Source: Prillingera fragicola
Taxonomy: Eukaryota > Basidiomycota > Tremellomycetes > Trichosporonales > Trichosporonaceae
Direction: 5' to 3'
Assembly: GCA_002335605.1 (NCBI GenBank)
Contig: BEDY01000006.1
Coordinates: forward strand, 1,364,001-1,428,000
Length of the DNA stretch: 64,000 nt
Shown one piece after another: positions 36,614 to 55,642 of this stretch. Numbering within the stretch: the stretch's first letter is position 1; each line of letters begins with the position of its first letter. Made by a program: the position numbers and the translations under genes. Under the pieces are notes generated by a model that saw only the letters and a program-made list of their open reading frames with translations, was not told the DNA's origin and searched no databases.

Positions 36614-39222
36614 TTACTGCACTAGATAATCTTCCCAGTTGAACGGCAGCGTAGTAGCCAGCGAGGTCCAGTATGCCTCGTCAAAGGCCGAGAAACCAGG
36701 TGTGGCATTCAACAGCTCGTTGTCCAAAAAGCTCGACTGGCCGTCAGCCTACAAACCCGCACAGCACTCACCAAGTCGCTCAAAACGTTTTCATCCACAG
36801 GGTTGAGTACTGGAAGATCCAAGTCTGCCGTTATAATAGACTTGGTTGTCAAGTCGGCCGTTGGATCGTCCAGCCGCATCTCCGGGGGACTGGGGGATGG
36901 CTGCCGACTCATTGCCACTGATGCAGTGTTGAGGCTCCTGAGGAGCTTTTCGTAAAACCTGGCAATGAACGCGGTGGGGACGTCGGTCTCCTCGTCACTG
37001 GCTGTACGGCAGATATCGTAGACCTCGGAGAGGAGGGAGATTGCCAGCCGGCGCTGAGGATTGGAGAACCGCCAATACAGCTGGGGCCGTCAGATTGGGT
37101 GCGTCTTGCCCACTCACGCTTTGCATGGAAGAGCCAAAGACGGCCAGGCGCACTGACAGCGCATCCTGGATGAAGCGCAACGTATGACTGATAATTCGCA
37201 GCTCCCCGAGAAACATGACAGCCAGCTCGAGGCATTCGTCAAGAATAGGACCAATCTCATGCTGTTGAACATAGTTCAACATGTAGACGCGAATGGCGAG
37301 GGTAGCGCTGAAAATGACCATTCGCAGCGCAGCGTCCTTTTCCGCGCCGACTCCGTTTTGCCCTCGTGGCTGGGAGAACCACTTGTTCGTGACTGCTAGA
37401 GCTTGGTTGTAGCGCTGTTCCAGCTTCATGAGAGTGAGGCTACGATCGATCGAGTGACCGGGATCGGGGAGACACCCAGTGTCGGTGTATGGGAGATGAC
37501 TGACATTAGCATGGTTGTCACAGACAGGCTACGCACTCGAGTGAACATGCCAGCCCCAGGTCTCGTGTTCCGCATGCAAGCTCAGCATGACTTCGCGCCC
37601 AGTTCTCGCACTCGCACAAGTCAGCGCAGTTCAACACCAGCAACCTTACATCGGCCACTTCGTAAGAGCGAATAGTAGCTGGCAACCCAAATAGGGGAGC
37701 GTACGTCTTGTCAAAGGCTGTTGTCAGCGGCTTCCACCTCTTGCCACCAACCAGTCAGGCAAAACCACGTCCTCTCACGGTTCTGACTTGTCAGCCAGGA
37801 GCTACCAAACACCACGTCATGCCACACACCAGTCGCTCCCTGTCGACTGAAGGAGCCATATCCTTGCTCTGGGTATGCAGACCCAGCTGATACCCTTGCC
37901 GAATAGCGATACCAATCTTCATCCATGCCGATTGGTCGGTTGGCTGCTTGTCTGTTCCGCTTCAGCGCCATATCACCACCAATGAGCGACTCACAGTAGA
38001 CCAAAATCAAGGCAGCCTGGAGAATTCCAATATGGCATGCACCAACCTCTAGCGAAGCACTGAGGAGCCGCTGAGCTCGTCCAAGGAACATGGGGTATGA
38101 GTCTTTTCGGAAGAACTTTGCCGACGCTGCAAGGACTGCGGAGAAGAGCACCGTGCTCGAGCCGCGCACGTATTCGTATGTGTGCACTGTACGAGTCAGT
38201 ACCATGTTGCATGAGAGAACTCACAGTCGGGGTCGAATAAATTGAGCTGCGTGGTGAGGTTCTTGTGAAATCTGGCGTGAGCTCCACTCTTCACAGGGTG
38301 ACTCACAAGTAGACAAGCCGACGGGCTTCCTCGTTGGTAATACACCCAGCACTGACAGGGTCGTCGCTGGCGCCATCCTGCGACTCCAGCCCGTGGCTCT
38401 GCGGCGAAGTGTTCCAAGTGTCTGGAAGGCTGAGGTCGTCGTCTCCTGGGTCGAGGTGACGGCAGACGTCCGTCTGCGCGACAGCGCGGAACGCAGAAGT
38501 CGATATAGGTGCGTTCGACATTCCAGAGGATAGGAACGGGCCTGACGGTGAGGCTAGCCTTGCACGCTTCGGTGGTCTGTTCCACGCGCTCAGGATTGCG
38601 TCGGATGCCAGCTGTGTCTGTGCCGGTTGTTGGCTTATTGTGGCTGTAGGTGCTTCGAGGGAGGTTCTCAATGATGCCACATAGCGAGCGGCCAGACTTG
38701 GAATCGATGCGACTGATGGTACTGCCGTCGAGGCGTAGCTCGCTGGCGTGGGGAGCTGCGGGGGCGATGATGACCCCGTGAGAGGTGGTGCGACGACGAC
38801 ATCGGCTGTGGCTGGCTGTGGGACAGCGGAAGAGGCTCTGGACACAAGGTTAGACGCAAAGGCGTGGGCAGATAGACCTCCTCACTGTGCGAGAGCTTTC
38901 AAGTTTCGTCGTTTCCTAGAGTATGCGCAGGGCAGGTTCATGCGAGCTGGTTGTCAGTCTGGTGCTTGGCACGAAGGGGTCGACTGACCGCAGCGCTGGC
39001 AAGAGTTTCTGTAGTCTGCATTATTGACACACACGACCTAGAACAGTGAGCAGTGATCTAGACCATGACCAACTGGCCACGAACCTTGACTCCTCGACAG
39101 AGAATGCATCTGCCAACGTCAGCGGCCTAGTATCAAACGGCCCCACATCTGTTCCAAGCCCCATGACACCCTCGCCCAAGAGTAGGAGCGATCAGTACTC
39201 ACGCCCTGGTAGGTTCGACCAT
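36614..39222 (-). CDS. Zn2Cys6 transcription factor A
   Basis: Fungal binuclear zinc-cluster regulator of roughly 650 residues in about nine exons. Exon 1 encodes MVEPTRA. Joined small exons give CILCRGVKVVC, then nine residues, CQRC, six residues and C (C-x2-C-x6-C-x9-C-x2-C-x6-C), followed by basic YSRKRR. A Ser/Pro-rich linker carries a second basic patch (PPKRARLAS). The middle homology region has STVLFSAVLAASAKFFRKDSY, the IGIAIRQGYQLGLH helix and NRERTWF. It ends NWEDYLVQ. Every one of these blocks, and the intron positions, recurs in the gene at 49468, so the two are paralogues. It is divergent with the Gfo/Idh gene at 39517, the common arrangement of a pathway regulator and its target. 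Exon limits in the middle are approximate. Confidence 0.85.
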
Positions 39223-39350: not shown

Positions 39351-39370
39351 TCGGATAAACCCTCGGATAA
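39351..39370. promoter_or_regulatory. Two direct TCGGATAA motifs in the divergent promoter of module A
   Basis: TCGGATAA at 39351-39358 and again at 39363-39370, twelve bases from start to start, within the 294-bp promoter shared by regulator A and the Gfo/Idh gene. CGG is the usual core half-site of Zn2Cys6 regulators. The same octamer occurs before regulator B and twice in the divergent promoter of module B. The second copy overlaps CCTCGG, a hexamer linked to fatty-acid regulation in other fungi. Confidence 0.6.
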
Positions 39371-39516
39371 GTCATACCCCCATCCATTCAGAACGATGCA
39401 TGGGGGCATCCTACATGTGGGGGGAGCCATCTGTGGGCAGTGAGCAGCTTGCCCACGTCGTTTAAAGCAGGCCTTTTCATGACTTGCATCTCTCAACATC
39501 TCGTCCCAACTCCAAC

Positions 39517-40909
39517 ATGACAGCCTCACACTCTAGCTCTGACGCGCCCTACGTGGTCAAGTGGGGGTACGTTGACCATCTCCATCTCGAGCTGACGTCA
39601 GAATCATCGGCGCAGGATGGATCTCGGACATGTTCTGTAAAGATGTCAGCTTTGATCGCGAGGAGGTAACCGACGTCAGCCACGCCATCGTCGCCGTCGG
39701 ATCGCGGGACAAGAGCAAGGCAGCCGAGTTTATCGCCAAGACGATTCCCAAGGGCTCGCGTGCCCAGGTGCAGGGACATTATGACAAGCTGCCAGAGGCG
39801 TGTGGATCTTACGAGGAGGTGTACGCCCATCCTGTGAGTCACCGGTGTAGCCTTGGGGCGCTTCCGGGAATGACAGCTGACACCCACAGGATGTGCAGAT
39901 TGTGTACATCGGCACCCCTCACCCGCAGCACTTCGCCGAGACCAAGGCTGCTCTCGAAGCCGGCAAGCACGTTCTGGTCGAGAAGCCCGCCTGCCTCAAC
40001 GCGGCCGAGTGGGCTGTGCTCAGTGTTCTTGCAAAGGAGAAGAACCTGTTCCTGATGGAGGGACTCTGGACGCGCTTCCAGCCGCTCATTGTCAAGCTGC
40101 AAAAGGCTCTGCACGAGGACAAGGTCATTGGCGACATTCGCTATGTGAGGTCCGACTTCTCCATGGCGTTCTACGACTGTGAGTGTCCTTGGGTTGCGCT
40201 TTGCCTGACATGCAGTCAACCCGGATACCCACCGCACCATTGCGCTTGAATCAGCCGGGGGAGCCCTGTACGACCTGGGCGGCTACGCTCTGCTCCCAGC
40301 AATGCTCGCGCTGTACGAGGCGCCGGCCAACGAGCTCTCCCCGCCCGAGAACCTGCACGCGTCCATGGTCATGACGCGCACGGGCACGGATCTGAGCACG
40401 AGTGTGACGATGGACTTCCCCAAGATCCTGGGTAAAGCCGTGTGCACGACCAGCTTTGCGTACAACTCGCCCAAGGACGAGCCCGGGGTGATTGTCGGCA
40501 CCAGGGGGGAGATTGTGCTGCACGGGGCCGTGTCGCGGCCGACCAGCCTGACTATCAAGACCATCAAGGGTGATCCCGCCCCCGCGCCGTTTATCAAGGA
40601 GTGGAACGAGCCTATCGAGGTCGACGCAGAGTTGGGCCCGGGGTTTGGGCTGTACTTTGAGGCCGACGCTGTCGGAAGGTCTCTTCGCGGTGAGTGTGGT
40701 GTGATAAGGGAGGAGTGGTGCTGATAACGTTTAGACGGGGACATTGAGAACGCTGCCCAGCCGCATAGTCGGACTGCCATGGGTCTGGAGGTGAGTTCGA
40801 GTCTTGCGACCGCGGCGCTAACAGGAAGATGTTTGACAAGATTCGCAAGCTTGGTGGTTATGAGCTTCCTCCTGGCCTGGAGCAGGTCACGAGCTCTTCA
40901 AAGCTTTGA
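39517..40909 (+). CDS. Gfo/Idh/MocA oxidoreductase with SKL peroxisomal signal (module A)
   Basis: NAD(P)-dependent oxidoreductase of about 390 residues in six exons. The Rossmann loop is built across the first intron (VVKWG joined to IIGAGWISDMF). YIGTPHPQH and the family's catalytic Lys in GKHVLVEKPA follow, then FLMEGLWTRFQP and GDIRYVRSDFS. These resemble dihydrodiol dehydrogenase and D-xylose 1-dehydrogenase (NADP) relatives. The last exon, after two introns near 40690 and 40790, ends TSSSKL, a canonical PTS1, so the protein should be imported into peroxisomes. That is unusual for this family as I know it. The start at 39517 is the first ATG. It is divergent with regulator A and convergent with the Dal5-type permease. 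Confidence 0.85.
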
Positions 40910-41032
40910 TCTAGCATAGTAGCTCCAAAGCACGATGCAAGGCCGCTCGGCAACAATCACATGGGTTGGTGTGCATCATTGTACCACTCAACAGCTTACA
41001 AACGACTAACTCGCACGTCTCATTGACTCCTC

Positions 41033-42919
41033 CTAGATCATGTACCTGAAGTGACGGTTCTCAATGTCGGTCAAGTCGTTCTCACCAGCGACACGACTCT
41101 GGTGCTCGCGCTCCTCGGGCGTGAGACCCTCTGCGAGGGCCGCGGCGTCGCGCTTCTTGTTCTGGCGGTAGTAGTGCCACCACCAGAGGGCCGTGTTGAT
41201 GCATCCCGCAATCAAGATGATGGCGCACGCAGTGAGACCCTTGAGGTACTTTGGCGCGTCCGAGGGGACAAAGATCTGCGAGCCAATAATGTTACCGACG
41301 CAGTAGACGAGGAGCGAGGAGGCGCCAAAGAACGACTTTTTGGTGCGGCCTGCGACGTTGATGGAGATCATTGGCCACGCGGTGACAAACGACGCGATAG
41401 AGTAGACGAGCGAGAGCATCCAGACCCCCCACTTGGCCCACTTGGACACTTCGGCGAGACCTGCAAACAGCAAGACGACGCAGCATACGGCCTGGACGAA
41501 GATACCGATGGGGAAGCGCATGCGGGGGAAGTAGCGGACCGTGACGGACGCGACAATCACGCAGCAGCAGGTGACGGCGTACATGGGCAGCGAGTAGATG
41601 ATGGACTCGAGGGGTGTGAAGCCGAATCCGCGGTAGATGAGCGTCTGGAAGGTCGTGAGAGCGCCGTTGGGAATGTTGCCGAGCAGGTTGAACATGAGCG
41701 CATAGTAGTACTGGGGGTCGCGGAAACACTCTTTGACCTGGTCCCAGCGCCACTTTTGCACACCACCGTCACCGGTAGAGTTCTCGGACACGCGGGCCTT
41801 GGCCATGCGCTTCTCGCGCTTGGAGAGCCACCAGACCTCGTCCGGGGTGCCGCCAAAGATGAAGAAGATGATGCCCATGCCGACAGTGACGCCGCCGAGG
41901 AACAGGTTGATGACCCGCCATGCAGCGAGGCCGCCACGCTGCTGCGCGTTGAGCGCAATGTAGTAGATGCCCACGCCAAAGACCATGGCAAAGAACGAGT
42001 CTGGCCGTCAGCTAGCACGCCGCGCCACACGCAGCGCCACTCACTCATCGAGCAGTAGAGACCCTGGCGCAGCGTCTGCTCCTTGCGTAGCCACCACGAC
42101 GCCGTAAAGATGGCAAAGCCTGTCACACTCGTCAGCAGCGGCCCGCTCTTCGTCGAGCTCGCCTGCACTCACCGGGGGTGACGACCGACTCGAACCAACC
42201 GAGCAAAACACGCACGGCGGCCAGCTGGGCATAGTTGTTGCACGCTCCGAGGAACATGACCATGGCGCCCCACAGGATGGTGCATACTGCCAAGGCGCGT
42301 CCGAGGGGGAAGCGCTGCAGGACCCACGCCATGGGGTACTGGGCGACAGCGTACGACATGTCTGGTGGAGCGTGTCAGCGGTTGGTCGGAAAATGCGCGG
42401 AACGGTAAAGTGGGGCTGGCAAAAGGGACTGAAATGAAAGCAAGCACGTACAGAAGAAGGAGGTAAGGTTGCCAAACTCGTTCTTAGCCATGTTGAGGTT
42501 GGTGTCCTCCTTGAGACCAAAGACGACACCGGACGAGAGCGACGTCTTGTCAGAGTACTGCAGGCCATAGACTGGAGCTGTCAGTGCTGATAAAGTGGCC
42601 GAGAAAACAAAACGTACTGATCATGAGCATGGGCATGAGGATGCTATCAGGTCAGCACCACTCCACCCGCAGACACTCACAAGTCGACTTTGAGCATGAG
42701 ACGCTTGTACTCCTGGGGACTGCCCGTCAGCACTGAGGCTTTACAAAAAGACACTCACGTAAACTCGTCGTGGGCGCGCACGAGATCCTCGGCGGCGTCA
42801 ATGGGCTTTTCGTCGCTGCTGAGCCGCCCACCCTCGTCGTAGGTGCCGCCATGCTCTGCAAAGGCGTCGGGCCGCTTCTTGTCCGATACGAGCTCGGGGA
42901 CTGTCCCGTGGTTGGCCAT
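41033..42919 (-). CDS. MFS transporter, Dal5/allantoate permease (ACS) family (module A)
   Basis: Major facilitator of the anion:cation symporter family, about 500 residues in six or so exons. A hydrophilic, acidic N-terminal tail (VSDKKRPDAFAEHGG) precedes EYKRLMLKVD and YSDKTSLSSGVVFGL, which is typical of Dal5-like permeases. FESVVTPGFAIFTASWWLRKEQ lies in the loop after helix 4. The largest exon (41986-41033) covers helices 5-12, with GNIIGSQIF and a C-terminal tail ending HFRYMI. Dal5 relatives take up allantoate, ureidosuccinate, nicotinate or other organic anions; the substrate is not determinable here. It converges with the SKL-tailed oxidoreductase 123 bases away. Its own promoter lacks the TCGGATAA motif. 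Confidence 0.85.
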
Positions 42920-44635
42920 TGTTGATAGAATTGTGATGCAGGAAGACACACAGGCGGGGTACTCCTGCCCTTGTTCTTAAACTCTCTGCTGCAGTAGTGT
43001 GCCGCTTTCTGCCGCGATCACGCCCACCCCCGTGATGTGCACGAGCGGCCAATGGATCTCTCGCCTCTCTCTCACATGATACGGGACCTGTCGTATAAAG
43101 TAGATAGGTGGGCTCGCGACGGCCCGAAAGACTAAAGTTGGAAAACAACGCCAGGGGGGATGTGGTGCCTGCGCTGCTGTCATGGTTGGAGCATCTTCGA
43201 ATCGCGATAGGCGACACCCGAATAGTCCCTGAGGGGATAGGGGCACGCCGAGGAGAACCGAACCGTTCCGCTCTGCGCCAGAGGCGCGGCGGCGGAGGTG
43301 GCCTTGGAGCGGGGTTGCCAAGATGTTGCCGAGGGTGGGTGGTGCGGGCCAGTCGGTGCTGGTCGCTGGCCCTGACCGAGTTAGGCCCCACTGCCTCTGT
43401 TTTGTTGACGATAGGTGTATAGGTGAAATGGTAGTGCCGGCCGGTGAGCACGGCAGAGATGATTGGGTTGTATGCGATGCTTACAGGTGATAGGAGGACT
43501 GGGCAGCTGGTGTTGATCCTTGCTTCACCTTGCACCTTGCAGTGTATGTAAGCCTGCACCAGCTTTGATGTGCACCCCGACATGCTACCACGGTCGACGG
43601 CCATCGCAAAGGAAAGCGAGTATGCAGCTGTTGCCGTGACTCGTCTCGAGATAGCGCCACACAGCCGCGGGTTTTCTAACAAATCAGTATCACATTCCTT
43701 ACAAGATCACAATCTCAACAAATCCAAGATCGAAGGGACGTGTGCGCTGCGGTCATAGGCTCCTCCTGCTCTGCACCCGCTGTTGCAAGGCTGCTTCCAG
43801 TCGCTAGGGTGGCTTCATTCGGGCTCTGCCTGGGACCTGTGCCGATTACTGTCCATCATGCCAGCCTCGAGTGGATTGGCACACTGTGGTTGCCGGATGT
43901 ACCAGCATGATTGCCGGTGCATGACGCGTTTGCCGTACTACAAGCCCGTGGGGATGACGGCAGCGAGCGGTCGATGCAGCCAACACCTTTCGCTTCGAGG
44001 CGAGACTCGCACAACCCAGCAGTGACATGAGCCACTGCGCCGTTGGGGCCATTACGGCCCCACCCCGCCCATTTTCCGCGTTCGTCACCTTGGAGCTCTG
44101 TCACTTTGGAGCATTTGCCCTCTTGCATCGCTGCCTGACCTTCTGGCGACGAGTCTTGCTCTGTCTTCATTGGGTCGGGCTGTTGCATTCGTTCAGCAGC
44201 AGAGCCACGGCGATCACCACTTAGGAACTGCAACGAGATGATTCCCATCGAGCAGAGGCACCATCCACCCCATAGGCACAATCTCGCCAAGCCATTCCAG
44301 CTGGTATCAACCACCGACAGATGACCGAGGCAGGAGCGACGCATGGCTGTGGCCAGTGGTTTAGCATAGAGGGCAGACCTGTGCCATGCTATAGATGTGC
44401 ATATGCACATACCCTCTGAACAAGGATGGGACAGGATGCCAAGAGCTCGGCTTTTCGTACCCGGGTTGTGGTAACTGCGGTGGAGGTCGATCACTCTCTC
44501 ATTACTGCTCACATGACATCCACATCGCTTCATTGTTCGTGGCTTGTCCCATCATAAAGTCATCTCTTATTGTCTTAACACCCCATCCCCCAGCACATCC
44601 ATCCACCACCTCCTCACCCTCCTAGCAGCGTCAAC
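42920..44635. other. 1.7-kb gene-free interval
   Basis: Divergent promoter space of the Dal5-type permease and the MpaB-like gene. The part before 44636 is CT-rich (about 44575-44630), typical of a 5' UTR. Two long open frames on the minus strand (42798-43682 and 43856-44533) have no recognisable domain and skewed composition, and I do not call them genes. Confidence 0.4.
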
Positions 44636-46117
44636 ATGCTGCACCCCAATCTCGCCTACGCGGCACTCGCAGCGGGCATGGCAGCCCTAGCCATCCGCAT
44701 GGTCCGTGTCAGACGCGTCCGCTACAACCGCGTCAAGGAGATGAATGCAACGTATGCCCACCTTCTCAACGACCTCGACGGCATGACGTACCAGGAGGCT
44801 GAGAAGATTATGAAGGTTTCACAGAGCTTTGTGCGTCGCGTTTCGCAGTGTAGCCAAGCGCTGACGAACTAGGACATGCCGTGGCTCATTGCGCTGTCGC
44901 TCAGTTTCGCCCTCTTCAAGACCTATGCCATCCCCACCATCTCGTCCGTGCTGTGCAAGTCCAACGAGCTCGGCAAGAAGGAGAACGCGGGGCGGCGCGC
45001 AGAGGACACGGCTGTCGTCATCGGTGCGTGTCGGACAAGGCTGTTACTGACGACCAGGCGAGTTTCTATACGGCGGTGGCCTGGACAGCGAGCGCGGCAC
45101 GACTGCCTTGGCGAGGATGAACTTTCTGCACTCGCGCTATGGCAAGCTCATCACGCGCGAGGACAAGCTGTTTACCCTCTGCTTGTTCATCTTTGAGCCG
45201 GCCAGCTTTGCGGACGCGTACGAATGGCGCGGCCTCGAGGATATCGAGAAGCAGGCGAGGTAAGTGGCTAGGACGCGAGGCGGCGTGTGTGACGAATCGG
45301 CCGCCGTGTGGCTTCTGCTTCGAGTAACCGAAGTGAGCGGTGGGAGGTGGGAGGCTACCGCATTCCTCGGAACGCCTCTTTGGCGCACTTGTACTCAAGT
45401 CGAGGTCGATCACATGATGGTTCTGTTGACGGCTTTCGGTTCCTCACCACCCACCTAGGCACACCCACCTACCCCACTACCTTCGTACTGACAAGCAGGT
45501 ACGTCTTCTGGCGCGAGATTGGCGCGCGCATGGGCATCGACAACATTCCACCCACCCGCCAAGGCCTGTGGGACTGGAAAGAGTCCTACGCCAGCAAACA
45601 CTTTGTGTACGCGCCGACAAACAAGCAAGTGGGCGACGCGACGTTTGACGTCTTTCTCCGCCCGTTCCCCGAGTTTATGAAACCGTTTGGCCTCACTGCC
45701 TCCCTCGTCTTTCTGGACGACCAGACGCGCGAGGCATTCGGCTACCCCCGCCCCCCTGCGTATCTCTACACCCTCGTCCCAGCCCTGGTCCGCTTCAAGG
45801 GCCTCGTGGTGAAATATCTCCACTACCCGCGCGAGACGCTGCCGACGTTTTTGGACAGCTTTGAATACACCGACTCGGCGGGGCAGAAACGCGTCAAGCG
45901 CAAGGGGTTCCTCTTTGAGCCGTGGTATGTCGACGACTCGGCGTCGGCGTTGGGTCTGTTTGCGTTCCTAAAGCCGGGGAAACAGTGGCACGACGAGGGG
46001 TTTGCGGGTCACGAGCTCGGGCCCGAGAGGCTCAAGGCCGTCGGCACGGAGACTGTGCTCAAGGAGGGAGAGAGGTTGAGGGAGGGGGCCATGGCTTGCC
46101 CGTTCTTCCACTCGTAG
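44636..46117 (+). CDS. MpaB/rubber-oxygenase-like (DUF2236-type) oxygenase, membrane anchored
   Basis: About 390 residues in four exons. An N-terminal hydrophobic anchor (LAYAALAAGMAALAIRM) is followed by the conserved GTTALARMNFLHSRYGKL and TLCLFIFEPASFADAYEW, which match the MpaB / latex-clearing-protein group of haem-dependent oxygenases. The predicted haem and active-site region lies around this RxNxxH stretch. Exon 4 adds WREIGARMGIDNIPPT and FGYPRPPAYLYTL. MpaB-type enzymes cleave isoprenoid side chains oxidatively at the ER. Here the substrate is unknown. The third intron is about 240 bases (45260-45498), the longest intron of the window. The first intron has a weak donor (GTTTCA). Confidence 0.78.
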
Positions 46118-46397
46118 GTTGGCTTGGGGTCTGGCTGTGTCTCATGGGAAGAGCTGGGGAGTGGGTATGTATGTCATTATCACGGCTCATCGCTTCCCCC
46201 CACGGACGCCGCAGGCTGAACCCGCAATTCACTGCTTGTTACTGATCGTTAGGTGTCGTTACATGCCAATGTCCAAATCTATGAACAACAACCCAAAGTC
46301 CAAACTATCTCTGAGCGTCCTCGATATTGACCTCCTCCTTTACTGTCTCCACAGCCCCACCCTCACCATCCAGTTCACCATCAGCAGGTGCAGCAGT

Positions 46398-48332
46398 CTA
46401 AATACCCCCCTCAACATGCCCTCCAACCGCCGCCGCCACCACACCAGACCCGCCCGCCGCCTCCCGCTCACTCACATACTCCCCGCCCCAACTCTCATCA
46501 TACCTCGGGGGCACAGTATCCGCGCGCCCAGCATCAAGCTCCTGCATCCCCATCTCCAACCCGGCATTCCTCCTCGCAGCGCCCGCAGCCTTTTCCCTCG
46601 CCACAGCCGCCTGCGCAGCGTACGCCCCCACCACATCCCCCCGCCCAGTCCCGAGCCCCGCCAAACCGGCCGTGGTGGCGGAAGCCACGCTGGGGACGTA
46701 GGCCGCCGCGACGCTGCCGTCGGGGTTGACGAGGCTAAAGTTGCGGAGCGCCCTGAGGGCCGGCTCGGGGGTGGGCGCGTGCAGCGAGGTGGTGGAGTCG
46801 GAGCGGAACATGGAGCTAAAGTCTAGGCGCGGGGAGGACGTCGAGGTCTCTGAGGCGGCGCTGTCGGTGCCTTCTGTTAGTTCTGTGCAGGGTAGGACTC
46901 ACGGAGGGGTCTGGGGCGGATGAGGGCTGGGGGGAGAGGCTGGGACATGTAGGGCGTTGTGGGGAGGTCGTCGACTACGAACTCGTCGTTGGGCATCGAG
47001 CGGCGCTTTAATGTGTCCTTGCTGCGGGTTAGCTTGGACGTGGGTGGACGTACTCCTTGAGCTTGCGGCCGATGAACCAGGCTCCGAGGGCTACGAGGAC
47101 TAGGAGGGCCACGCCGCCAATGACACCGCCTGCGATGGCGCCGACGGGTACTTTGTGGCTGGAGCTGGTACCGGGATTGGACGGGGGCTCGCTGCTAGGA
47201 GAGTCAGGTGATGTGGCTGACTCGGTGGTGTTTTGTGCACTGCTTATCAGTGTCAGACAACGGGTTTGCCACTTACAGCAACGAAGAGTAGAAGGTTGCG
47301 GAGTACACGCCAATGGCATCGGTAAGCACCCCTGCCACCCGGAAGCTGAGATTGTACTGCATGGTTGGATCCAGAGGGGCCATGAAATACAGTACTGGTG
47401 CCGAATAGCCCTGGTTGGCGTCCCACTGCTGCTGCGTGAATGCGTTCGGTGGGCTGGGAGTGAGCACAACCTCGTACACTGACGGGGACGGCTGGGTCGT
47501 GCCGTTGATGGTCATGTATGAGGTGTTCTGTGGAATCTGGGCAGTGAAAGAGGAGCGTTGTGAGAGACCGCTGATGATGGACAGTGATATGGACGCGGTG
47601 TCACCTGGTATAAGCTACGAGAGGAGTTGGACGCACCGTCACCGCCAATCTGCTGGCGCACACCCCACTCGCCGCTGAGATTGAAAAAGGTATTCGTAGT
47701 GCCGTCGGGGTTGACGAGCAACTCTTCGCGCAGAGGCACTTTGTCAAATGAGGTACTATAGGCAGTCAGCGCCCTGTTCATTATTTGCAGCCCTTGTTGC
47801 GACGTTGACACACGACGTACCCCTCAGTCTCCACCCTGGTGGTCACGTTGACACCCTCGAGCACCATCTGCCCCAAGATCAAGCTCAGCACGGCCGTATG
47901 CTCCCCATAGTCTCCATTGACCTTCCACGCGAGGGTATCTGTGGTCCCATTCTTTGCCGTGGGCGTAAAATCCGCATTCTCACCGTCCACAGTCAACCTA
48001 TACGTGCTGCCCGACACAATGGGGCCAAAGAAATAGACGGCCGAGCCTGTGTAGGAATACGTGACGGTCGCACCACCCAGAAGCGTCCTGTGCGACGCAG
48101 ACCCGCGGCCCGCGACGCTCCCCCCTGCTTCTCCTGGGGGGTCAGAGTCGGCGAACACGGAGAGCCAGCCGTTGGCTGGGTCGACTGTTGCGGACGGCGC
48201 GGGCGAGTATTGGAGGGGGGCGTCCATGGAGGACAATGTCCAGTTGACTGTCAGCTGGGCCAAGGCTGAAGTGAGCTGTGCGAGAAGCAGGACTGCTAGA
48301 GTGCTGAGCGCGGCTAAGTGGGGTGGCCGCAT
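46398..48332 (-). CDS. Single-pass membrane glycoprotein A (SKG6-like layout, PPxY tail)
   Basis: About 500 residues in six or more exons. A signal peptide (LAALSTLAVLLLAQLTSALA) is followed by two beta-sandwich-like ectodomain segments: TYSYTGSAVYFFGPI with YRLTVDG, then a second with YEVVLTP and YNLSFRVAGV. A Ser/Thr/Pro linker, one membrane helix (AIAGGVIGGVALLVLVALGAW) and a basic stop precede a cytosolic tail rich in Ala and Gly. The tail carries PPRYDESWGG, a PPxY motif. Layout and motifs recur in the gene at 62039. N-glycosylation sites (NWT, NGT, NVT) are frequent outside. Such proteins in fungi are poorly characterised; a cell-surface or polarity role is an inference. The ATG at 48332 is chosen because it opens the signal peptide. 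Confidence 0.75.
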
Positions 48333-49467
48333 GTTGGACAAGGAACGACAGTGAGGTTGGCTGCAGGGTGACTGAAGTGACTGATTGAGTGAGAGGGAGA
48401 TTGAACAGATGAGGAGCGAGAGAGCGTGAGAATGAAAGAGGAGGGAGATGACTGTGAGAATGAGAAGAGAAGAATAAGAATGCAAAGATTGCTGCATCGT
48501 GTCGCTGCACAGACCAGTTCTGTGCGAAGGTGGTGGGGGCAGTGCACAGATGGACGCGACTGATTTTGGCGCAGATTGAAAACACATGCAGCCATACACC
48601 CCACTCACTGGACACCCCAAGCACTTTGACATTGACAGCATAAAGCTCAGTGCTCCAGAGTCGGGCAGGGTCATACCTCAACTCTGTTGGTCCCCGTAGC
48701 AAGTGCACGTCATGGATAACACAGGTGCTCCATTGTTCAAAGTGGCTACGGCTAAATAAAAAGTGCCCCCTAAACTCGATCAACCGTACAACATGAATGT
48801 CGACTCGACTAGTCGCCTCTCTTGCCGCATGCATCTTTCCATGCCTTGACAAAAAGGAAATGACACTCCTCTGGAGCCAGAGGGAGTGCATAGCTGCTCG
48901 CACGCTGATTCGAACAGCGGTCTGATCGGCTTTGTACTATCACAACGACCCGGTTTAACCTCTAACCCTATACAAACAATTGATACCTGTAGAGCCCGAG
49001 AACTTGTGAAAACAGCGCTCCCGCTAGTGCCTGCAAAGCCTGAAGCGCTCTGTACTGGTTATATGCCCTGCATAGTCATGTATTGTTGCCACAGCGGACC
49101 ACGTTTACAAAATGCGCCGAGGGGAATGCCTCGGCCAACACTCTCACTTGCCTGTGCCCAGCGCTCAGGCTTGACTTCTTGGTGGGTTGCCTGGTAGTGT
49201 CCAGCTCGGCAACCCATGTAGATACCAGGCCTGGCAATGTCTTTCATCTGACTGCCATACGTTGCCTGAGCCTGAGGGAGCAACAGCGCATCGATCGACA
49301 TTCAGAGTGGTGCCACACTGCTAAACCACCAGCACGTTTTGCCGAGAGTTTATCCGACCAACAGATGACCCAATCTCCATTGCTCGGCATCACCTGTTCT
49401 CATCTGTACATTCATCCTATCAACACTGGCCACAGCATATCCGAGACTGCAAGCTCAAGGAGAAACC
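48333..49467. other. Intergenic interval with purine-rich leader and regulator B promoter
   Basis: Divergent promoter of glycoprotein A and regulator B. Next to the glycoprotein start, 48360-48480 is a GA-rich stretch (CT-rich on the sense strand). At 48903-48919 there is a perfect 5-bp hairpin with loop ATTCGAA, like a tRNA T-arm, but no complete tRNA. One TTATCCGA lies at 49350-49357. Confidence 0.45.
49350..49357 (-). promoter_or_regulatory. TCGGATAA motif upstream of regulator B
   Basis: TTATCCGA on the plus strand (TCGGATAA on the minus strand), 111 bases before the start codon of regulator B. A one-mismatch copy (ATATCCGA) is at 49437-49444. This suggests autoregulation if the octamer is the regulator's site. 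Confidence 0.5.
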
Positions 49468-52055
49468 ATGGCCGAAGAACCAAAGGCGTGAGTGCCAGTT
49501 GGATCATCAGACCTGGGTCATCAGTGACCCTCGACCGGGAACTGCTCTAACAACGCAGCTGCATACTTTGCCGAGGAGTCAAGGTTTGTTGCGAGTCTCG
49601 AGCCAAAGCACTGAATGTATCAGGTCAAGTGCCTGAACAATGGGGTCTATGACAAGCCATGTCCGCGCTGTAGTCAGTATGCCGGCAAACGTGCAGCACG
49701 CGCCGCCCACTGACCAGCAGCTCGGCTCAACCTGCCATGTGCCTACTCAAAGAAGCGGGCCAGCCGTAAAGCATCCCGGACTGGTGGCCCCGTCCCCATA
49801 GCTCCGGCCCCACCACCAGCGGTGGCCTCCACCTCCAAGAAGCCGTCACCGGTCAATGAGACGTGTCCTACCAGCCTCCCACCTGCAGCTGACCCGACCC
49901 CTCAACGATCCGGCTCCACCAGCGCCGCCAGAGACGTTCCCTGGCCCTCGCTCTCTACCCCACAAACAGCTCCCACCCCATCTCCCCCCAATCCCGCCTG
50001 GAGCAGGCCGACACGCAAGCGCCTTAGGACTGCATCTCCCGCAGGACCCTTTCTGCCCTCTGCCACTGCTCCTCGCGTAGCGGCGCGGACAGACGTTTCT
50101 CGTCATTTGGATCCAGGGCATGTTGGCACCGACGACTCGGACTACAGCTGGCATATTTCTCCACACGAGCGCGAGTCTGTCGTGGGAACACATGCCAGGG
50201 CCAGTGATGATCCCGTCAGTGCTGGGTATGTGACGCAGGAGGAGGCCGGGCGGTTGGTCCAGCAGTGCGTGTCGTGTGGCAATTGCTTGCAGCGTACTGA
50301 CCTCAGGTTCCACGAGTTTCTTAATCCACAGATCGCTCTCCTAGATCCCGAGTGTAAGGGTTGACACCATTACTAGAGACTGACCCGCCAGTGCATACGT
50401 TTGAGTACCTCCGCCGGACCAGTACAGTGCTCTTCTCTGCGGTCCTGGCGGCATCCTGCAAGTTCTTCCGCAAAGAGTCCTATCCTCTCTTTCTTCGGCA
50501 TGCGCAGCGTGTAGTCGGCTCTGCCTTGGAGTGCGGCGACTGCCACTTGGGTCTCGTGCAAGCGTCTTTAATCTTGGTCTACTGTAAGTCTTACCAAGAC
50601 CACGTTTCGCGCGGTCCGTTGACACTGCGGGCAGGGAAGCAGCCAGCAGATCAGTCGGCGTGGATCAAGATTGGTATAGCGATTCGCCTGGGGTATCAGC
50701 TCGGATTGCATCAGGCACAGCCCGAGTCTCTGTATAAACGCGGCCAAAGCGACCGGGAAGCACTTGTAAGCAGCGTCGTCGCAAGTCTTGTGTACTGACA
50801 AGTAGAACGGGGAGCGTACTTGGTTTTGTATGTGTTGTCGCTGGCGCCCGATATTTGCTAACCGCAATTTCTCCTCGTGCAGGTCTCGTTGGTACGTGAT
50901 TCTCTGGTTAACGATGGTCTGATCTTTAGCATTTGACAGAACATATGCTGGGCTCTTTGGTCTCCCAGCCACTATACGGACTCACGAATTGGGTGACGTA
51001 AGGAGCAGTGGTGATGACCGCTGACATTGCAGTGTGAGATGTGGGCCCACTCGCACGAGCACCTTGACATTGTGGACATTGATCTCCGACTTGCGTGCTC
51101 TCTAGAGTGAGTAAAAGGACGTGCAATTCTGACGCGACCAAGACATATCAGCCTCACGCAGGTGATTGATTTCCAGTCTGCATCCAGCTCCTCAGGGCAG
51201 CCGCACGACTTCAACCTGCTGTTCATGGAGCTTGAACGGCGATACTATCGAGCCGTTGCCGTGTCCAAAAAGTGGTGTGGTACCGGCGTCGAGCGTCCTC
51301 CTGGGCTGGGAGATCATCAACAGGCATTCCTCCGAATGGTCACGACTAGCGCAAAGCTTGCTATCCGCGTGCAAATGCTGGGCTGTGCTTTGCCTCGTGA
51401 TGTGGATAGTCTGCCGAGCGAATGCTTGGATCTAGCTGTGCTTTTTGTGGACCAGCTCCGCGTGATTGAGGGCACGTTGCAATATCTGCAGGATGTGCTT
51501 TCTGTGCGCCTCGCAGGCCTTGGCACAGCCCTTCAAAGCGTGAGTCTCATTCTGGAATGAAGTAAACGCTGACGTGCCCAGCTCTACTGGAGGTTATCCA
51601 ATCCACAACGCCGACTGGCAATATCCCTTTTAGCTACGGTCCACGACATCTGCCGCGCCTCGAGCGGCGACGAGACGGACGTGGCGACTGCCTTTGTTGC
51701 GAGATTTTTGGAACGGCTTCTGAGAACGATGAACACGGCCTCCAAGGCTGTCAGCCGAATGCCCACTCCCAGCCCCACTGCTGAGCATGAGGGTCTCGAG
51801 CCGCCCGCAGATACATTTACTGGCGCCGAGATAATGCTCGACTCTCAGCTTCCATGGCTCAATCCTGTGGATGACAATGTCCTCAATGACTTGGTGAGTG
51901 CCTGTTTCACGTTGATGCTGACGTCCAAGTCGACTTTTCTTGACAACGACCTTCTCACCACTGCACCGGCATTTTCTGCGTTTGATAAGCAATATTGGAC
52001 TTCATTGGCTACGACACTGCCATTCAATTGGGAAGAGTATCTTATCCCACAGTAG
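49468..52055 (+). CDS. Zn2Cys6 transcription factor B
   Basis: Paralogue of the gene at 36614-39222. Exon 1 encodes MAEEPKA, and the zinc cluster is assembled from small exons: CILCRGVKVKC, nine residues, CPRC, TRLNLPC, then basic YSKKR. All six Cys have canonical spacing. The Pro/Ser-rich linker contains RPTRKRLRTAS and the shared SRHLDPG and ASDDPVSAGYVT blocks. The middle homology region has VLFSAVLAASCKFFRKESY, ADQSAWIKIGIAIRLGYQL and GERTWF. The tail is LPWLNPVDDNVLNDL and ends NWEEYLIPQ. About nine introns occur at the same places as in copy A. It converges with the sugar transporter gene (115 bases between stops). The start is an ATG in AAACCATGG context. Confidence 0.87.
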
Positions 52056-52170
52056 CTCCATACATGTTGCATGTCTTCCCGTACATCCCCAAGCGTCCCC
52101 ACCGCCTCCCGTGCATAGACTCTGCTTACAATCCAAGTCTCCATCTGTTCGCTGTGCCCACGAGCATGAT

Positions 52171-53822
52171 CTACTTGGCGAGATGGCTCACGTTGTGGGC
52201 GTTCTCGACCATGACCGTCGTGTCGTGTTCCTTGACGCTGCCCGACTCGGCATCTTGGTTGATCTGAGTCGAAAGCACGCCCTCGCCGTCAAAGACCTCG
52301 GCGTTCTCCTCGAGAGTGCGGCCGCGAGTCTCAGGGTAGAAGAAGTAGATGACGACAATGAGGTAGACGAGCAACACGACGTAGACGAGGTAGTACTTCC
52401 ACTGGATGGCAGCGAGGGCCACGGGGTTGACCCAAGTGTTGATGCAGAGAGTGACGTACGTCGTACCCTGCCACAAGGCAAGGCCCTTGGCGCGAATGGT
52501 AAACGGCAGAATCTCAACAGTGTAGGCAATGTTGAGAGGAGACCATGCAAGGTCGTATCCGGCGTAGAAGAGGAAGAGGAAGGCGATAGTGGCGCCGCCA
52601 ATCGCGGCTGTGGGGGTGTGAACAAAGGTTGCGCTGAGGGCAGCAACAATGATGAGGGTGACGAGCATGACACCGGTGGATGCGAGCCAGAGGCATCGGC
52701 GACCGAGACGCTCTACGGCCATGGCGGCGGCAATCGCAAAAAACAGGTTGGATATGGCCATTCCACCCGAGATGAGCGACTGCTGCAGGTAGGAGGTGAT
52801 GCCGACGGATTTGAGAACGGGGACGAGGTAGTAGCTGACAATGCCGATGCCGTTGAGCTGAGCACCGGCGGCTGTGTTGACGACGATGAATGTGCGCCAG
52901 CGGTTGCCCTTGGTTGCCCAGAGCGCGCTCCAGCCAGTCGAGTGTTCGCGCTCAGCGGCAAGAGCGGCACGGACTTCCTCCATCTCAAAGTTGACGAGAG
53001 CGTCGTTTTCATCACCGTTTGCGTGGACCTTGGCAAACACCCGGCGAGCCTCTGCCTCACGACCCTTGGCGAGGTACCAGCGAGGCGACTCGGGAATGAA
53101 GACGAGGAAAGCGAGCATGATCGCAGGGAAGGCGGCCTGGAAGAGAACAGGCGTCCTCCACGACCAGTGAGAGTCGGGCATGTTCTGGAGGGTGCCGTAG
53201 GTAATCCACGACGACAGGATAGAGCCGACATAGTAGACGGTAATCTGCATAGACGTGGCCTTGGCGCGGAAACGAGGGCTGCAGTGTCAGCAATGATTAC
53301 CACAAATTGCCACAAGGCATGTACGTACTGGCAGAGTTCGGCACAGAGTGAGATGGCTCCGACACCACCAATAGAGGCCCCGATGCCCATGACAACACGA
53401 CCAGCCATGAGCTGCCCAATGGCTTTGGCAGTAGTTTGGATGACTGCGCCAGCCACAATCACAGCCACACCAATGAGCATGGGAATCTTGCGACCAATCT
53501 TGTCGGTGAGCCAGGCAGCAATGAATGGCACAATAAGGCCGGGCAAGAAGAGAAGAGCGCTGGTCACGCCGAGAATGTTCGAGTCCTTGAGGGAGGGAAA
53601 CTGTTCGTAAAGCAGAGGCACGGCTTGGAGCGCGTTCATTAGGGAGCCATCGTAGCCCGAGACCACTTGAGTGAGGGCAGTGACGGACACCCAGAGGACA
53701 TTGCGTCGAAGGGAAGGATCCTTCCACCAGCTGATTGATGATTAGCGCGCTGTTTTTCTGAGCGGCGACACAACTCACCAAGGGTCGGTATTGTTGGGAA
53801 TACCGTTGTAGACTGAAGGCAT
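52171..53822 (-). CDS. MFS sugar transporter (module B)
   Basis: Sugar porter family, about 510 residues in three exons (first from 53822, MPSVYNGIPNN). Family marks: GYDGSLMNALQ at helix 1; DKIGRKIPM after helix 2 (loop 2-3); PESPRWYLAKGR before the central loop; the GAQLNGIGIVSYY helix-7 region; RLGRR after helix 8; and PETRGRTLEE after helix 12. The closest feel is the lactose/galacturonate-type fungal porters (Lac12-like) rather than high-affinity hexose carriers. Substrate is not determined. The promoter (490 bases) is shared with the Gfo/Idh gene at 54313 and contains two TCGGATAA motifs. It ends NVSHLAK. Confidence 0.9.
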
Positions 53823-54030
53823 GGCTTGTTGGTTGCTATCGTTGAAGCTAGCCAGAAGAATGTGCTTGTGGAGACCTCTGAGGGCACCATGGGGTAGCTG
53901 TTATATGTTATCGAGCCATCGCTCCCGATAGAGTATTGATGACAGTCGTCAACTGTTGCGGCGTCTGTAGATCGGTGGCCGGCGTCCCGGAAATCATCAG
54001 ATCAAGTGGAGTGTAGCTTTCAAGTTGTGT

Positions 54031-54088
54031 TCGGATAAATCTCCAGCATGCTCATTGGACATCAGCACCGACGAGGACAATTATCCGA
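54031..54088. promoter_or_regulatory. Inverted pair of TCGGATAA motifs in the module B promoter
   Basis: TCGGATAA at 54031-54038 on the plus strand and TTATCCGA at 54081-54088, its reverse complement, 42 bases apart. Both lie between the divergent sugar transporter and Gfo/Idh genes. A looser TATCCGT is at 54163-54169. Confidence 0.6.
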
Positions 54089-54312: not shown

Positions 54313-55608
54313 ATGACCGTCTCAACTGCAACCCTCCCAGCCCAGCCCAGCCATGTTGTCAAGGTGGCAGTGAGTAAACACAAGTGCCAACTCTAGGCTT
54401 TCTGACACACTGCAGATCATTGGATGTGGCGAAATCGCCATGAACACACACCTCCCGACGCTTGGCCTCTGTTCGCACATCTTCAAGACTGAGGCCCTCG
54501 TCGACATCTCGGAACAGGCGCTCGCCCACTGCAGCGCCAAGTTCAATGTTCCAAAGACATTCACTAGCGTCGACGACATGCTCGCTGCCTGTCCCGAGAT
54601 CGAGCTCGTCATGATCATGAACGCCAACGAGTACCACGCCATCCACGCCGTCGCTGCTCTCAACGCCGGCAAGAATGTCTTTATCGAGAAGCCCATGGCC
54701 ATCACCTTGGAGAGCGCCGCCGACATTGAGGCCGCACGCGCTGCCAACAACAAGGTCGTGTTCGTAGGCTACATGCGGCGGTACGCCCCGGCCTTCCTGC
54801 GCATGAAGGAGCGTCTCGCAAAAGTCGCCGAGGGGGACATCAGCTTCATTCGCGTCAGGGACATTATCGGACAGGTGAGTGGTCTGCAGAGGCCGTAGCT
54901 GACGACACAGAACGAGTTCTTCGTGGACCAATCTGGCACGTTCCCTATCAAGTTTACCGACTTTCCAGTGGCAGCAGGTGCCGAGCGCGCCAAGTTGTCT
55001 GCTCTCCAGCACGCCCAGGCTCTCGGACCCAAGGCTGAGAACCGCCTGGATCAGCTCACGTGGATGCTGCTGAATGGTCTTGCGTCGCATGACCTGAGCG
55101 CACTGCGTGAGCTCGTCGGCATGCCGCAGCGGATTCTGAGCGCGACCCGAACCCCAGACGGTCGGTTTGTCACTGTCGTCATGCAGTAGTAGGTTTACCG
55201 AAAACTCTGACGAAAGGTCACTGACGCGTCGCAGCCCTGGATTTGTGGCCTTTTACGAGATGGGCATCGACGGCGTGCGCAAGTTTGACGCCCATATCGA
55301 GGTGCACGCCAAGGACACTCGCTTCAAGGTTTCCTACGACACGTGAGTCTCCGTTGATCCGCAGCAGCTGACAAAATCAGACCATACGTCAAGGGTCTCC
55401 CCATTACCTATTCTGTGCTCCGCTCTGACGAGAACGGCGACCACGTCGAGGAGGTCGTGCGTCCCACGTACGAGGACGCCTTTACCGCCGAGTACCGCGC
55501 GCTCCACGCGGCCATCACCGAGGGCGCCGAGGTCAAGACCAGCGCACTGGACGCGACCGAGGATCTGAAGCTGTTTGGAATGATCATGGATGCCATGGTC
55601 ACTTTGTA
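54313..55608 (+). CDS. Gfo/Idh/MocA oxidoreductase (module B)
   Basis: About 375 residues in five exons. The Rossmann loop is made across intron 1 (VVKVA joined to IIGCGEIAMNTHLP). IMNANEYHA and GKNVFIEKPMA, with the catalytic Lys, follow. VVFVGYMRRYAPAF then LNGLASHDLSALRELVG give the myo-inositol dehydrogenase-like active-site region with His-Asp. The exon junction MQ/YPGFVAFYEMG is in frame. It is only distantly related to the oxidoreductase at 39517, and ends DAMVTL without a PTS1. Its setting next to a sugar porter and a regulator points to oxidation of a sugar, polyol or sugar acid, but the substrate is unknown. It converges with the orphan gene at 55643. Confidence 0.87.
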
Positions 55609-55642
55609 GTGTGTCTAATGTATGTTGTGTCTGTCACGGCGC

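What the first reader, a model, noticed from the sequence alone, without database searches (positions are those of the whole stretch)
39351..54088. One octamer, TCGGATAA, marks the promoters of two regulator-transporter-oxidoreductase modules
TCGGATAA or its complement occurs at 39351 and 39363 (shared promoter of regulator A and Gfo/Idh A), at 49350 (before regulator B), and at 54031 and 54081 (shared promoter of the sugar transporter and Gfo/Idh B). I found no other exact copy by eye in the 64 kb. About two are expected by chance, spread at random, in both strands. The two regulators are paralogues, and CGG is the normal half-site of their class. The simplest reading is a common binding site, autoregulation and cross-talk between the modules. 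GATAA could also be read as a GATA-factor site, a real alternative.
Basis: partly seen in the sequence, partly recalled or inferred. Interest (0 to 1): 0.82.

Follow-up and report, generated by a model that had tools for sequence, protein, structure and literature searches.

The report
Shared promoter element of sugar-oxidation genes
A short DNA word sits in the control regions of two sister regulator genes and of neighbouring sugar-handling genes in a basidiomycete yeast; it is probably the docking site of those regulators, which would be a new example of an ordinary kind of gene switch.

Summary
TCGGATAA occurs five times in the window, at the stated places, all within 300 bp upstream of genes of the two modules; only one other of 6018 repeated octamers is fully promoter-confined, with four copies. 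Genome-wide it is neither unique nor over-represented: 133 copies in 20.25 Mb against 209 for its reversal, many inside genes. The kept unit is longer. RegA and RegB, 52% identical Zn2Cys6 paralogues with synonymous sites near saturation, share TCGGATAA-N4-TCGG in their promoters: 15 of 16 bases, same orientation, 128 and 110 bp from ATG. The genome holds three exact TCGGATAA-N4-TCGG: these two and one upstream of an aldo-keto reductase near a sugar-acid dehydratase. Four of five sites fit CGGNTAAW, the reported XlnR site; none fits the GATA consensus HGATAR. Best reading: a binding site of RegA/RegB or a regulator of like specificity, giving autoregulation and co-control of sugar-oxidation genes. 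Binding is untested, promoters of related yeasts could not be read, and module A's transporter lacks the site. New member of a known kind; modest interest.

The parts
36614..39222 (-). RegA, Zn2Cys6 / Fungal_trans regulator, 677 aa, 14 exons
   Evidence: hand-spliced, 13 GT-AG introns; Pfam Fungal_trans E 2.1e-11, Zn_clus 20.2 bits, just under the 21-bit cut-off
39351..39370 (+). composite element TCGGATAA-ACCC-TCGGATAA (two octamers, 12-bp period) in the 294-bp promoter shared by RegA and GfoA
39517..40909 (+). GfoA, D-xylose 1-dehydrogenase / dihydrodiol dehydrogenase-type Gfo/Idh protein, 393 aa, 6 exons
   Evidence: spliced; Pfam; 59% identity to a Saitozyma podzolica protein that UniRef names D-xylose 1-dehydrogenase; best PDB 2o48
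41033..42919 (-). MFS transporter A, no octamer in its promoter
   Evidence: gene model; Pfam MFS_1; octamer list
49342..49357 (-). composite element TCGGATAA-ACTC-TCGG, 110 bp before the RegB ATG
49468..52055 (+). RegB, Zn2Cys6 / Fungal_trans regulator, 668 aa, 14 exons, paralogue of RegA
   Evidence: hand-spliced, one exon corrected to 50930-50997; Pfam Zn_clus 25.2 bits, Fungal_trans E 8.1e-8; 52% identity to RegA over 707 aligned columns
52171..53822 (-). sugar transporter B
   Evidence: gene model; Pfam Sugar_tr E 2e-82
54031..54038 (+). octamer, 208 bp from the transporter B ATG and 274 bp from the GfoB ATG
   Evidence: gene models
54068..54088 (-). octamer at 54081-54088 with a TCGG after 9 bases; shares TTATCCGACCAA with the RegB promoter
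54313..55609 (+). GfoB, Gfo/Idh sugar oxidoreductase of another subfamily, 374 aa predicted
   Evidence: gene model; Pfam; best PDB matches DgpA1 and glucose-fructose oxidoreductase

Best explanation
TCGGATAA is the strong half of a Zn2Cys6-type regulatory element whose fullest form is a direct repeat, TCGGATAA-N4-TCGG. RegA and RegB, or another regulator with the same specificity, bind it through their zinc clusters, probably as dimers on CGG half-sites. They thereby control their own genes and the neighbouring sugar uptake and oxidation genes (GfoA, transporter B, GfoB), and probably a dispersed set, such as an ADH and an aldo-keto reductase around an IlvD/Edd sugar-acid dehydratase on contig C2. 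Shown: position, confinement to promoters in the window, conservation between the two regulator promoters. Inferred: who binds, dimer geometry, activation or repression, and the inducer (a pentose or its aldonic acid is a guess from the enzymes).
For: All 5 copies within 300 bp upstream of genes of the two modules. The best alignment of the RegA and RegB promoters, and the best of 20 promoter pairs compared by shuffle P, is CCGAGGGTTTATCCGA / CCGAGAGTTTATCCGA, same orientation, 128 and 110 bp from ATG (10 of 3000 dinucleotide shuffles reach it on one strand). With the element masked the best score falls from 27 to 19, at non-collinear places. Four-fold synonymous sites agree in 62 of 194, 32% against 26% at saturation. 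TCGGATAA-N4-TCGG occurs 3 times in the genome: RegA/GfoA, RegB, and 153 bp before an aldo-keto reductase. With spacers of 3-6 bases there are 7 sites, all upstream of an oxidoreductase or of RegA/RegB (GfoA/RegA, RegB, ADH, AKR, two aldehyde dehydrogenases, a P450); with spacers of 7-12 there are 7, of which one is (GfoB/transporter B), two are in exons, one is between convergent genes and three are unclear. Octamer within 600 bp upstream in 3 of 19 AKR and 2 of 11 scored aldehyde dehydrogenase genes. Four of five window sites match CGGNTAAW, reported for XlnR in A. oryzae (PMC6486530, passages read).
Against: No binding or expression data. The word is not over-represented genome-wide (133 against 209 for its reversal), nor is the composite with spacers 2-12 (14 against 13 for the reversed pattern), nor the looser TCGGNNAA repeat (15 against 17). 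In 76 held sites a following TCGG shows no sharp spacing peak (three at 12, two each at 14, 16, 17, 28). The AKR and aldehyde dehydrogenase families were tested after examples had been seen, and the spacer division at 3-6 was made after looking; for five of the wide-spaced sites only 500 bp of flank was read, against 900 or more for the narrow ones. Zinc-cluster genes have the octamer within 600 bp upstream in 1 of 61 cases, 3 of 61 within 1 kb; ADH 1 of 36; none of 12 other Gfo/Idh genes. The kinase control was 1 of 52, typed from the first 52 of 144 listed matches and measured from the domain start, so it is weak. Module A's transporter lacks the site. Part of the RegA/RegB similarity may be descent from one promoter. 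RegA's zinc cluster scores just below the Pfam cut-off.
Confidence: 0.58

Rival explanations
1. The site is real but belongs to a third regulator, for example a broad pentose regulator of XlnR/AraR or Pnt1 type; RegA and RegB are merely two of its targets.
For: The octamer followed by A or T matches CGGNTAAW / CGGDTAAW of XlnR and AraR. Sites also lie upstream of dispersed catabolic genes. Pnt1 shows that one Zn2Cys6 protein can govern pentose use in a basidiomycete yeast (PMC10398944, introduction and passages read).
Against: The two best composites sit at the two paralogous regulators, as autoregulation predicts. No protein named XlnR or AraR was among the 3 and 5 relatives listed for RegA/RegB (candidate lists capped), but such a gene elsewhere in the genome was not sought.
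Confidence: 0.27
2. GATA-factor site: GATAA is the recognised core and the sites reflect nitrogen, iron or light control.
For: All copies contain GATAA. The transporter B/GfoB promoter also holds three HGATAR sites, two of them 18 bp apart, and the RegB promoter one.
Against: All five octamers have G before GATA, whereas AreA prefers HGATAR (PMC4246892, passages read). The second half of the composite keeps TCGG and not GATAA at RegB, AKR and P450. The RegA/GfoA promoter has no HGATAR.
Confidence: 0.05
3. Chance: an octamer picked out by eye among tens of thousands.
For: Its window count ranks only about 58th; five in 64 kb somewhere in the genome is expected in 9.9% of random placements; no genome-wide over-representation against the reversed word.
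Against: Promoter confinement is the best of 6018 repeated octamers; the RegA/RegB conservation extends beyond the octamer.
Confidence: 0.08

Closest known systems
XlnR / AraR binding sites of Aspergillus (CGGNTAAW / CGGDTAAW)
   Same: CGGATAAA and CGGATAAT fit both; sugar-catabolic promoters; Zn2Cys6 context
   Different: Fixed T before CGG and an N4-spaced second TCGG; the listed relatives of RegA/RegB include no protein named XlnR or AraR
Pnt1, pentose regulator of Rhodosporidium toruloides
   Same: Zn2Cys6 regulator of sugar use in a basidiomycete yeast
   Different: The words motif and binding site do not occur in the main text (supplements not seen), so its site cannot be compared; orthology with RegA/RegB not tested; here there are two linked paralogues
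CGG direct-repeat sites of Zn2Cys6 dimers (Hap1, AmyR; recalled)
   Same: Direct repeat of CGG
   Different: Repeat period of 12 bp with an extended GATAA half
QutA / qa-1F site GGRTAARYRYTTATCC (recalled)
   Same: GGATAA half-site
   Different: That site is an inverted repeat; here the repeat is direct

Membership tests
Zn2Cys6 (Gal4-type) transcription factor, RegA and RegB | six-cysteine cluster C-X2-C-X6-C-Xn-C-X2-C-X6-C | tested here: met
   CILCRGVKVVC...CQRCARMNLPC and CILCRGVKVKC...CPRCTRLNLPC; Pfam Zn_clus above cut-off for RegB (25.2 bits), just below for RegA (20.2 against 21)
Zn2Cys6 (Gal4-type) transcription factor, RegA and RegB | Fungal_trans middle domain | tested here: met
   RegA E 2.1e-11; corrected RegB E 8.1e-8; the first RegB model, with a wrong exon, did not match
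XlnR/AraR-type binding site | CGGNTAAW | tested here: met
   4 of 5 window sites; 39363 is CGGATAAG and fails
XlnR/AraR orthologue | closest relationship to XlnR or AraR | tested here: inconclusive
   homology searches listed 3 and 5 proteins, all from basidiomycetes, none so named; candidate lists were capped; no tree with XlnR/AraR was built
GATA-factor (AreA) site | HGATAR at the octamer | tested here: not met
   all five octamers read GGATAA
GATA-factor (AreA) site | two HGATAR within 30 bp in the same promoters | tested here: inconclusive
   absent at RegA/GfoA and RegB, present once (18 bp apart, away from the octamers) at transporter B/GfoB
D-xylose 1-dehydrogenase / dihydrodiol dehydrogenase, GfoA | Gfo/Idh N and C domains and closest relatives of that name | tested here: met
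   activity not testable
Operational regulon | direct binding and co-expression | not testable with these tools
   needs EMSA, ChIP, RNA

The most novel reading that the evidence does not exclude
A so far undescribed regulon for oxidative, non-phosphorylative sugar-acid catabolism in a tremellomycete-like yeast: a duplicated Zn2Cys6 pair reads a TCGGATAA-N4-TCGG direct repeat at its own genes, at a D-xylose-dehydrogenase-type gene, and (with N4 or N6 spacing) at a distant cluster with an L-arabinonate-dehydratase-like enzyme, an ADH and an aldo-keto reductase.
Probability: 0.3. Interest if true: 0.55.

Novelty: new member of a known kind. Interest (0 to 1): 0.38.

Why it matters
A 2023 paper states that little is known about the regulation of pentose catabolism in any basidiomycete yeast (PMC10398944, introduction read). 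A defined element plus two candidate regulators gives a direct, cheap test of one such circuit and a short list of candidate target genes.

Tried and rejected
A self-trained gene finder with re-estimated intron scores collapsed into absurd models; fixed intron scores worked but missed both regulators, which were spliced by hand (a first attempt, stopped on a wrong tag). GfoA coordinates were off by one and corrected. Confidence in the best explanation was lowered from 0.60 to 0.58 because the reversed-pattern controls, first left out, are now counted. The idea that the following base (A/T against G/C) separates promoter sites from others found no support: on contig 1, 4 of 10 against 4 of 11 held sites lie within 600 bp upstream of a predicted start. 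A sugar-transporter enrichment test was not possible because only 9 of 234 candidates were scored. Gfo/Idh genes as a class are not marked. Orthologous promoters in related yeasts could not be read: G000 has no relatives in the genome search, and the other collections offered are prokaryotic, viral or capped at zero. Literature: the whole word TCGGATAA is in 0 papers of the library; CGGATAAA and its relatives in one statistics paper, seen as a listing only; CGGATAA inside longer words in at least two listed papers (PMC4409711, PMC7652724), not read.
Full report
What is there. The octamer TCGGATAA is present at 39351+, 39363+, 49350-, 54031+ and 54081-, with no sixth exact copy in the window. 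Shuffles give 0.76 copies; the genome average gives 0.42 (133 copies in 20,248,525 bases). The window is contig C6:1364001-1428000 of a 17-contig genome with many short introns. The best named GfoA relatives are Saitozyma and Kwoniella proteins, so a basidiomycete yeast of the tremellomycete class is likely.

Gene models. RegA (36614-39222, minus, 677 aa) and RegB (49468-52055, plus, 668 aa) were spliced by hand, each with 14 exons and 13 GT-AG introns. They are 52% identical over 707 aligned columns. Both match Zn_clus (RegA just below the cut-off) and Fungal_trans. GfoA (39517-40909) has relatives that UniRef names D-xylose 1-dehydrogenase (NADP+) (best 59% identity, Saitozyma podzolica; 1234 matches, 120 listed), and its best solved relative is dimeric dihydrodiol dehydrogenase. 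Transporter B is a Sugar_tr protein, transporter A an MFS_1 protein, GfoB a Gfo/Idh protein of another subfamily. Between the modules lie a gene with an mpaB-type domain (44636-46117) and a weakly predicted membrane protein gene.

Is it more than chance? By number in the window the octamer is about 58th, and genome-wide its reversal is commoner (209 against 133). By place it is remarkable: all 5 copies lie within 300 bp upstream of a modelled start, in 10% of the window. Of 6018 octamers with at least four copies only one other, AAAGCAAA, is fully confined, with 4 of 4; the expected number of TCGGATAA in that promoter DNA is 0.10. The five copies lie in three promoters that serve five genes of the two modules; the transporter of module A is not among them. 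At least five points in 14.7 kb arose in 0.02% of 5000 uniform placements, and the list of near neighbours shows no other stretch of that length with more than three. The word was chosen after looking.

The unit is longer than the octamer. The best alignment between the RegA and RegB promoters is CCGAGGGTTTATCCGA against CCGAGAGTTTATCCGA, in the same orientation relative to the gene and 128 and 110 bp from the ATG; no other of 20 promoter pairs had as low a shuffle P. One-strand dinucleotide shuffles reach that score in 10 of 3000 trials. With the element masked the best score drops from 27 to 19, at places that are not collinear. Four-fold synonymous sites of the two genes agree in 62 of 194 (32%; 26% expected at saturation), so unconstrained DNA should hardly be alignable. 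Read on the other strand this is TCGGATAA-N4-TCGG, a direct repeat of 12 bp. The genome has three exact copies of that form: RegA/GfoA, RegB, and C2:2575326, 153 bp before an aldo-keto reductase gene.

Elsewhere in the genome. All seven sites with a second TCGG after 3 to 6 bases lie upstream of an oxidoreductase gene or of RegA/RegB: GfoA/RegA; RegB; a zinc alcohol dehydrogenase at C2:2568463 beside an IlvD/Edd dehydratase whose best PDB matches include L-arabinonate dehydratase; the aldo-keto reductase at C2:2575326; aldehyde dehydrogenases at C2:135175 and C1:2134013; and a P450 at C9:462745, start codon not settled. Of the seven with spacers of 7 to 12, one is the GfoB/transporter B promoter, two are in exons (one on a weak model), one is between convergent genes, three are unclear with only 500 bp of flank read. 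The spacer limit was set after looking. As a class, composites with spacers 2-12 are not in excess (14 against 13 for the reversed pattern), nor is the looser repeat TCGGNNAA-N3-8-TCGGNNAA (15 against 17), and 76 held sites show no sharp spacing peak. In a family test an octamer lies within 600 bp upstream of 3 of 19 aldo-keto reductase genes and 2 of 11 scored aldehyde dehydrogenase genes (43 candidates existed), 1 of 36 ADH, 1 of 61 zinc-cluster and 0 of 12 Gfo/Idh genes outside the window; the kinase control, the first 52 of 144 listed matches, gave 1. Two of the three aldo-keto reductases and both aldehyde dehydrogenases had been seen before the families were chosen, so those numbers are a lead, not proof.

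Against a universal promoter role: of the first 20 sites on contig 1, seven fall in predicted exons or introns, seven within 600 bp upstream of a predicted start, six elsewhere. Flanks of 77 of the 133 sites were held in all (and the window); 56 were not read.

Who binds? Four of the five window sites match CGGNTAAW and CGGDTAAW, reported for XlnR and AraR of A. oryzae (PMC6486530, passages read). The GATA consensus HGATAR (PMC4246892, passages read) is not met at any of the five; HGATAR sites away from the octamers exist at RegB (1) and transporter B/GfoB (3, two of them 18 bp apart), none at RegA/GfoA. RegA and RegB are zinc-cluster proteins beside their candidate sites, and the two best composites of the window are in their own promoters, so autoregulation plus control of neighbours is the most economical model. 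A third regulator with the same specificity is the main rival.

Kind and novelty. Zinc-cluster proteins bound to CGG repeats at catabolic promoters are well known (recalled); this is a new candidate pair in a poorly studied group. Few homologues of RegA/RegB came up: 3 proteins with the single sequence and 5 others with the profile, all from basidiomycetes, in searches that scored a capped candidate list and used the older RegB model. In Leucosporidium creatinivorum the GfoA relative P0019 and the RegA/RegB relative P0124 both list a longest contig of 877200 bases, which suggests, but does not show, that regulator and dehydrogenase are linked there too. A transcriptome paper on Saitozyma podzolica reports higher expression of a dihydrodiol / D-xylose 1-dehydrogenase gene on xylose (EHS25_002701, not one of the two best GfoA matches of that species) and cites xylonic acid accumulation (PMC8466774, passages read), which fits the proposed role of GfoA only in a general way.

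Noticed in passing
L029:1-9001 and L030:1-6000 (C2:2564500-2579500): An IlvD/Edd sugar-acid dehydratase gene, a zinc ADH, a transhydrogenase-like gene and an AMP-binding-like gene (both named by eye), and an aldo-keto reductase lie together with three octamers; looks like part of a sugar-acid pathway.
   Followed up: partly
L031:453-5207 (C2:131952-136706): A 4-hydroxybenzoate-hydroxylase-like gene and an SDR gene (named by eye) and an aldehyde dehydrogenase gene (Pfam) form a possible aromatic catabolic cluster with two octamers.
   Followed up: no
L009:3328-6148 (C1): Maleylacetoacetate-isomerase-like and homogentisate-dioxygenase-like genes (named by eye; the first matches Pfam GST_N) are neighbours; the octamer lies 237 bp upstream of the first.
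   Followed up: no
44636-46117: Gene with an mpaB/rubber-oxygenase-type domain (Pfam 26.5 bits, cut-off 23) between the two modules.
   Followed up: partly
   Followed up: no
53908 and 53926: Two HGATAR sites 18 bp apart in the transporter B/GfoB promoter, a possible separate GATA-factor site.
   Followed up: partly
36614-39222 and 49468-52055: RegA and RegB each have 13 short introns for genes of 2.6 kb; most exon lengths correspond, but RegA has one extra junction near the N terminus and RegB one extra in the middle, by hand-made models.
   Followed up: partly
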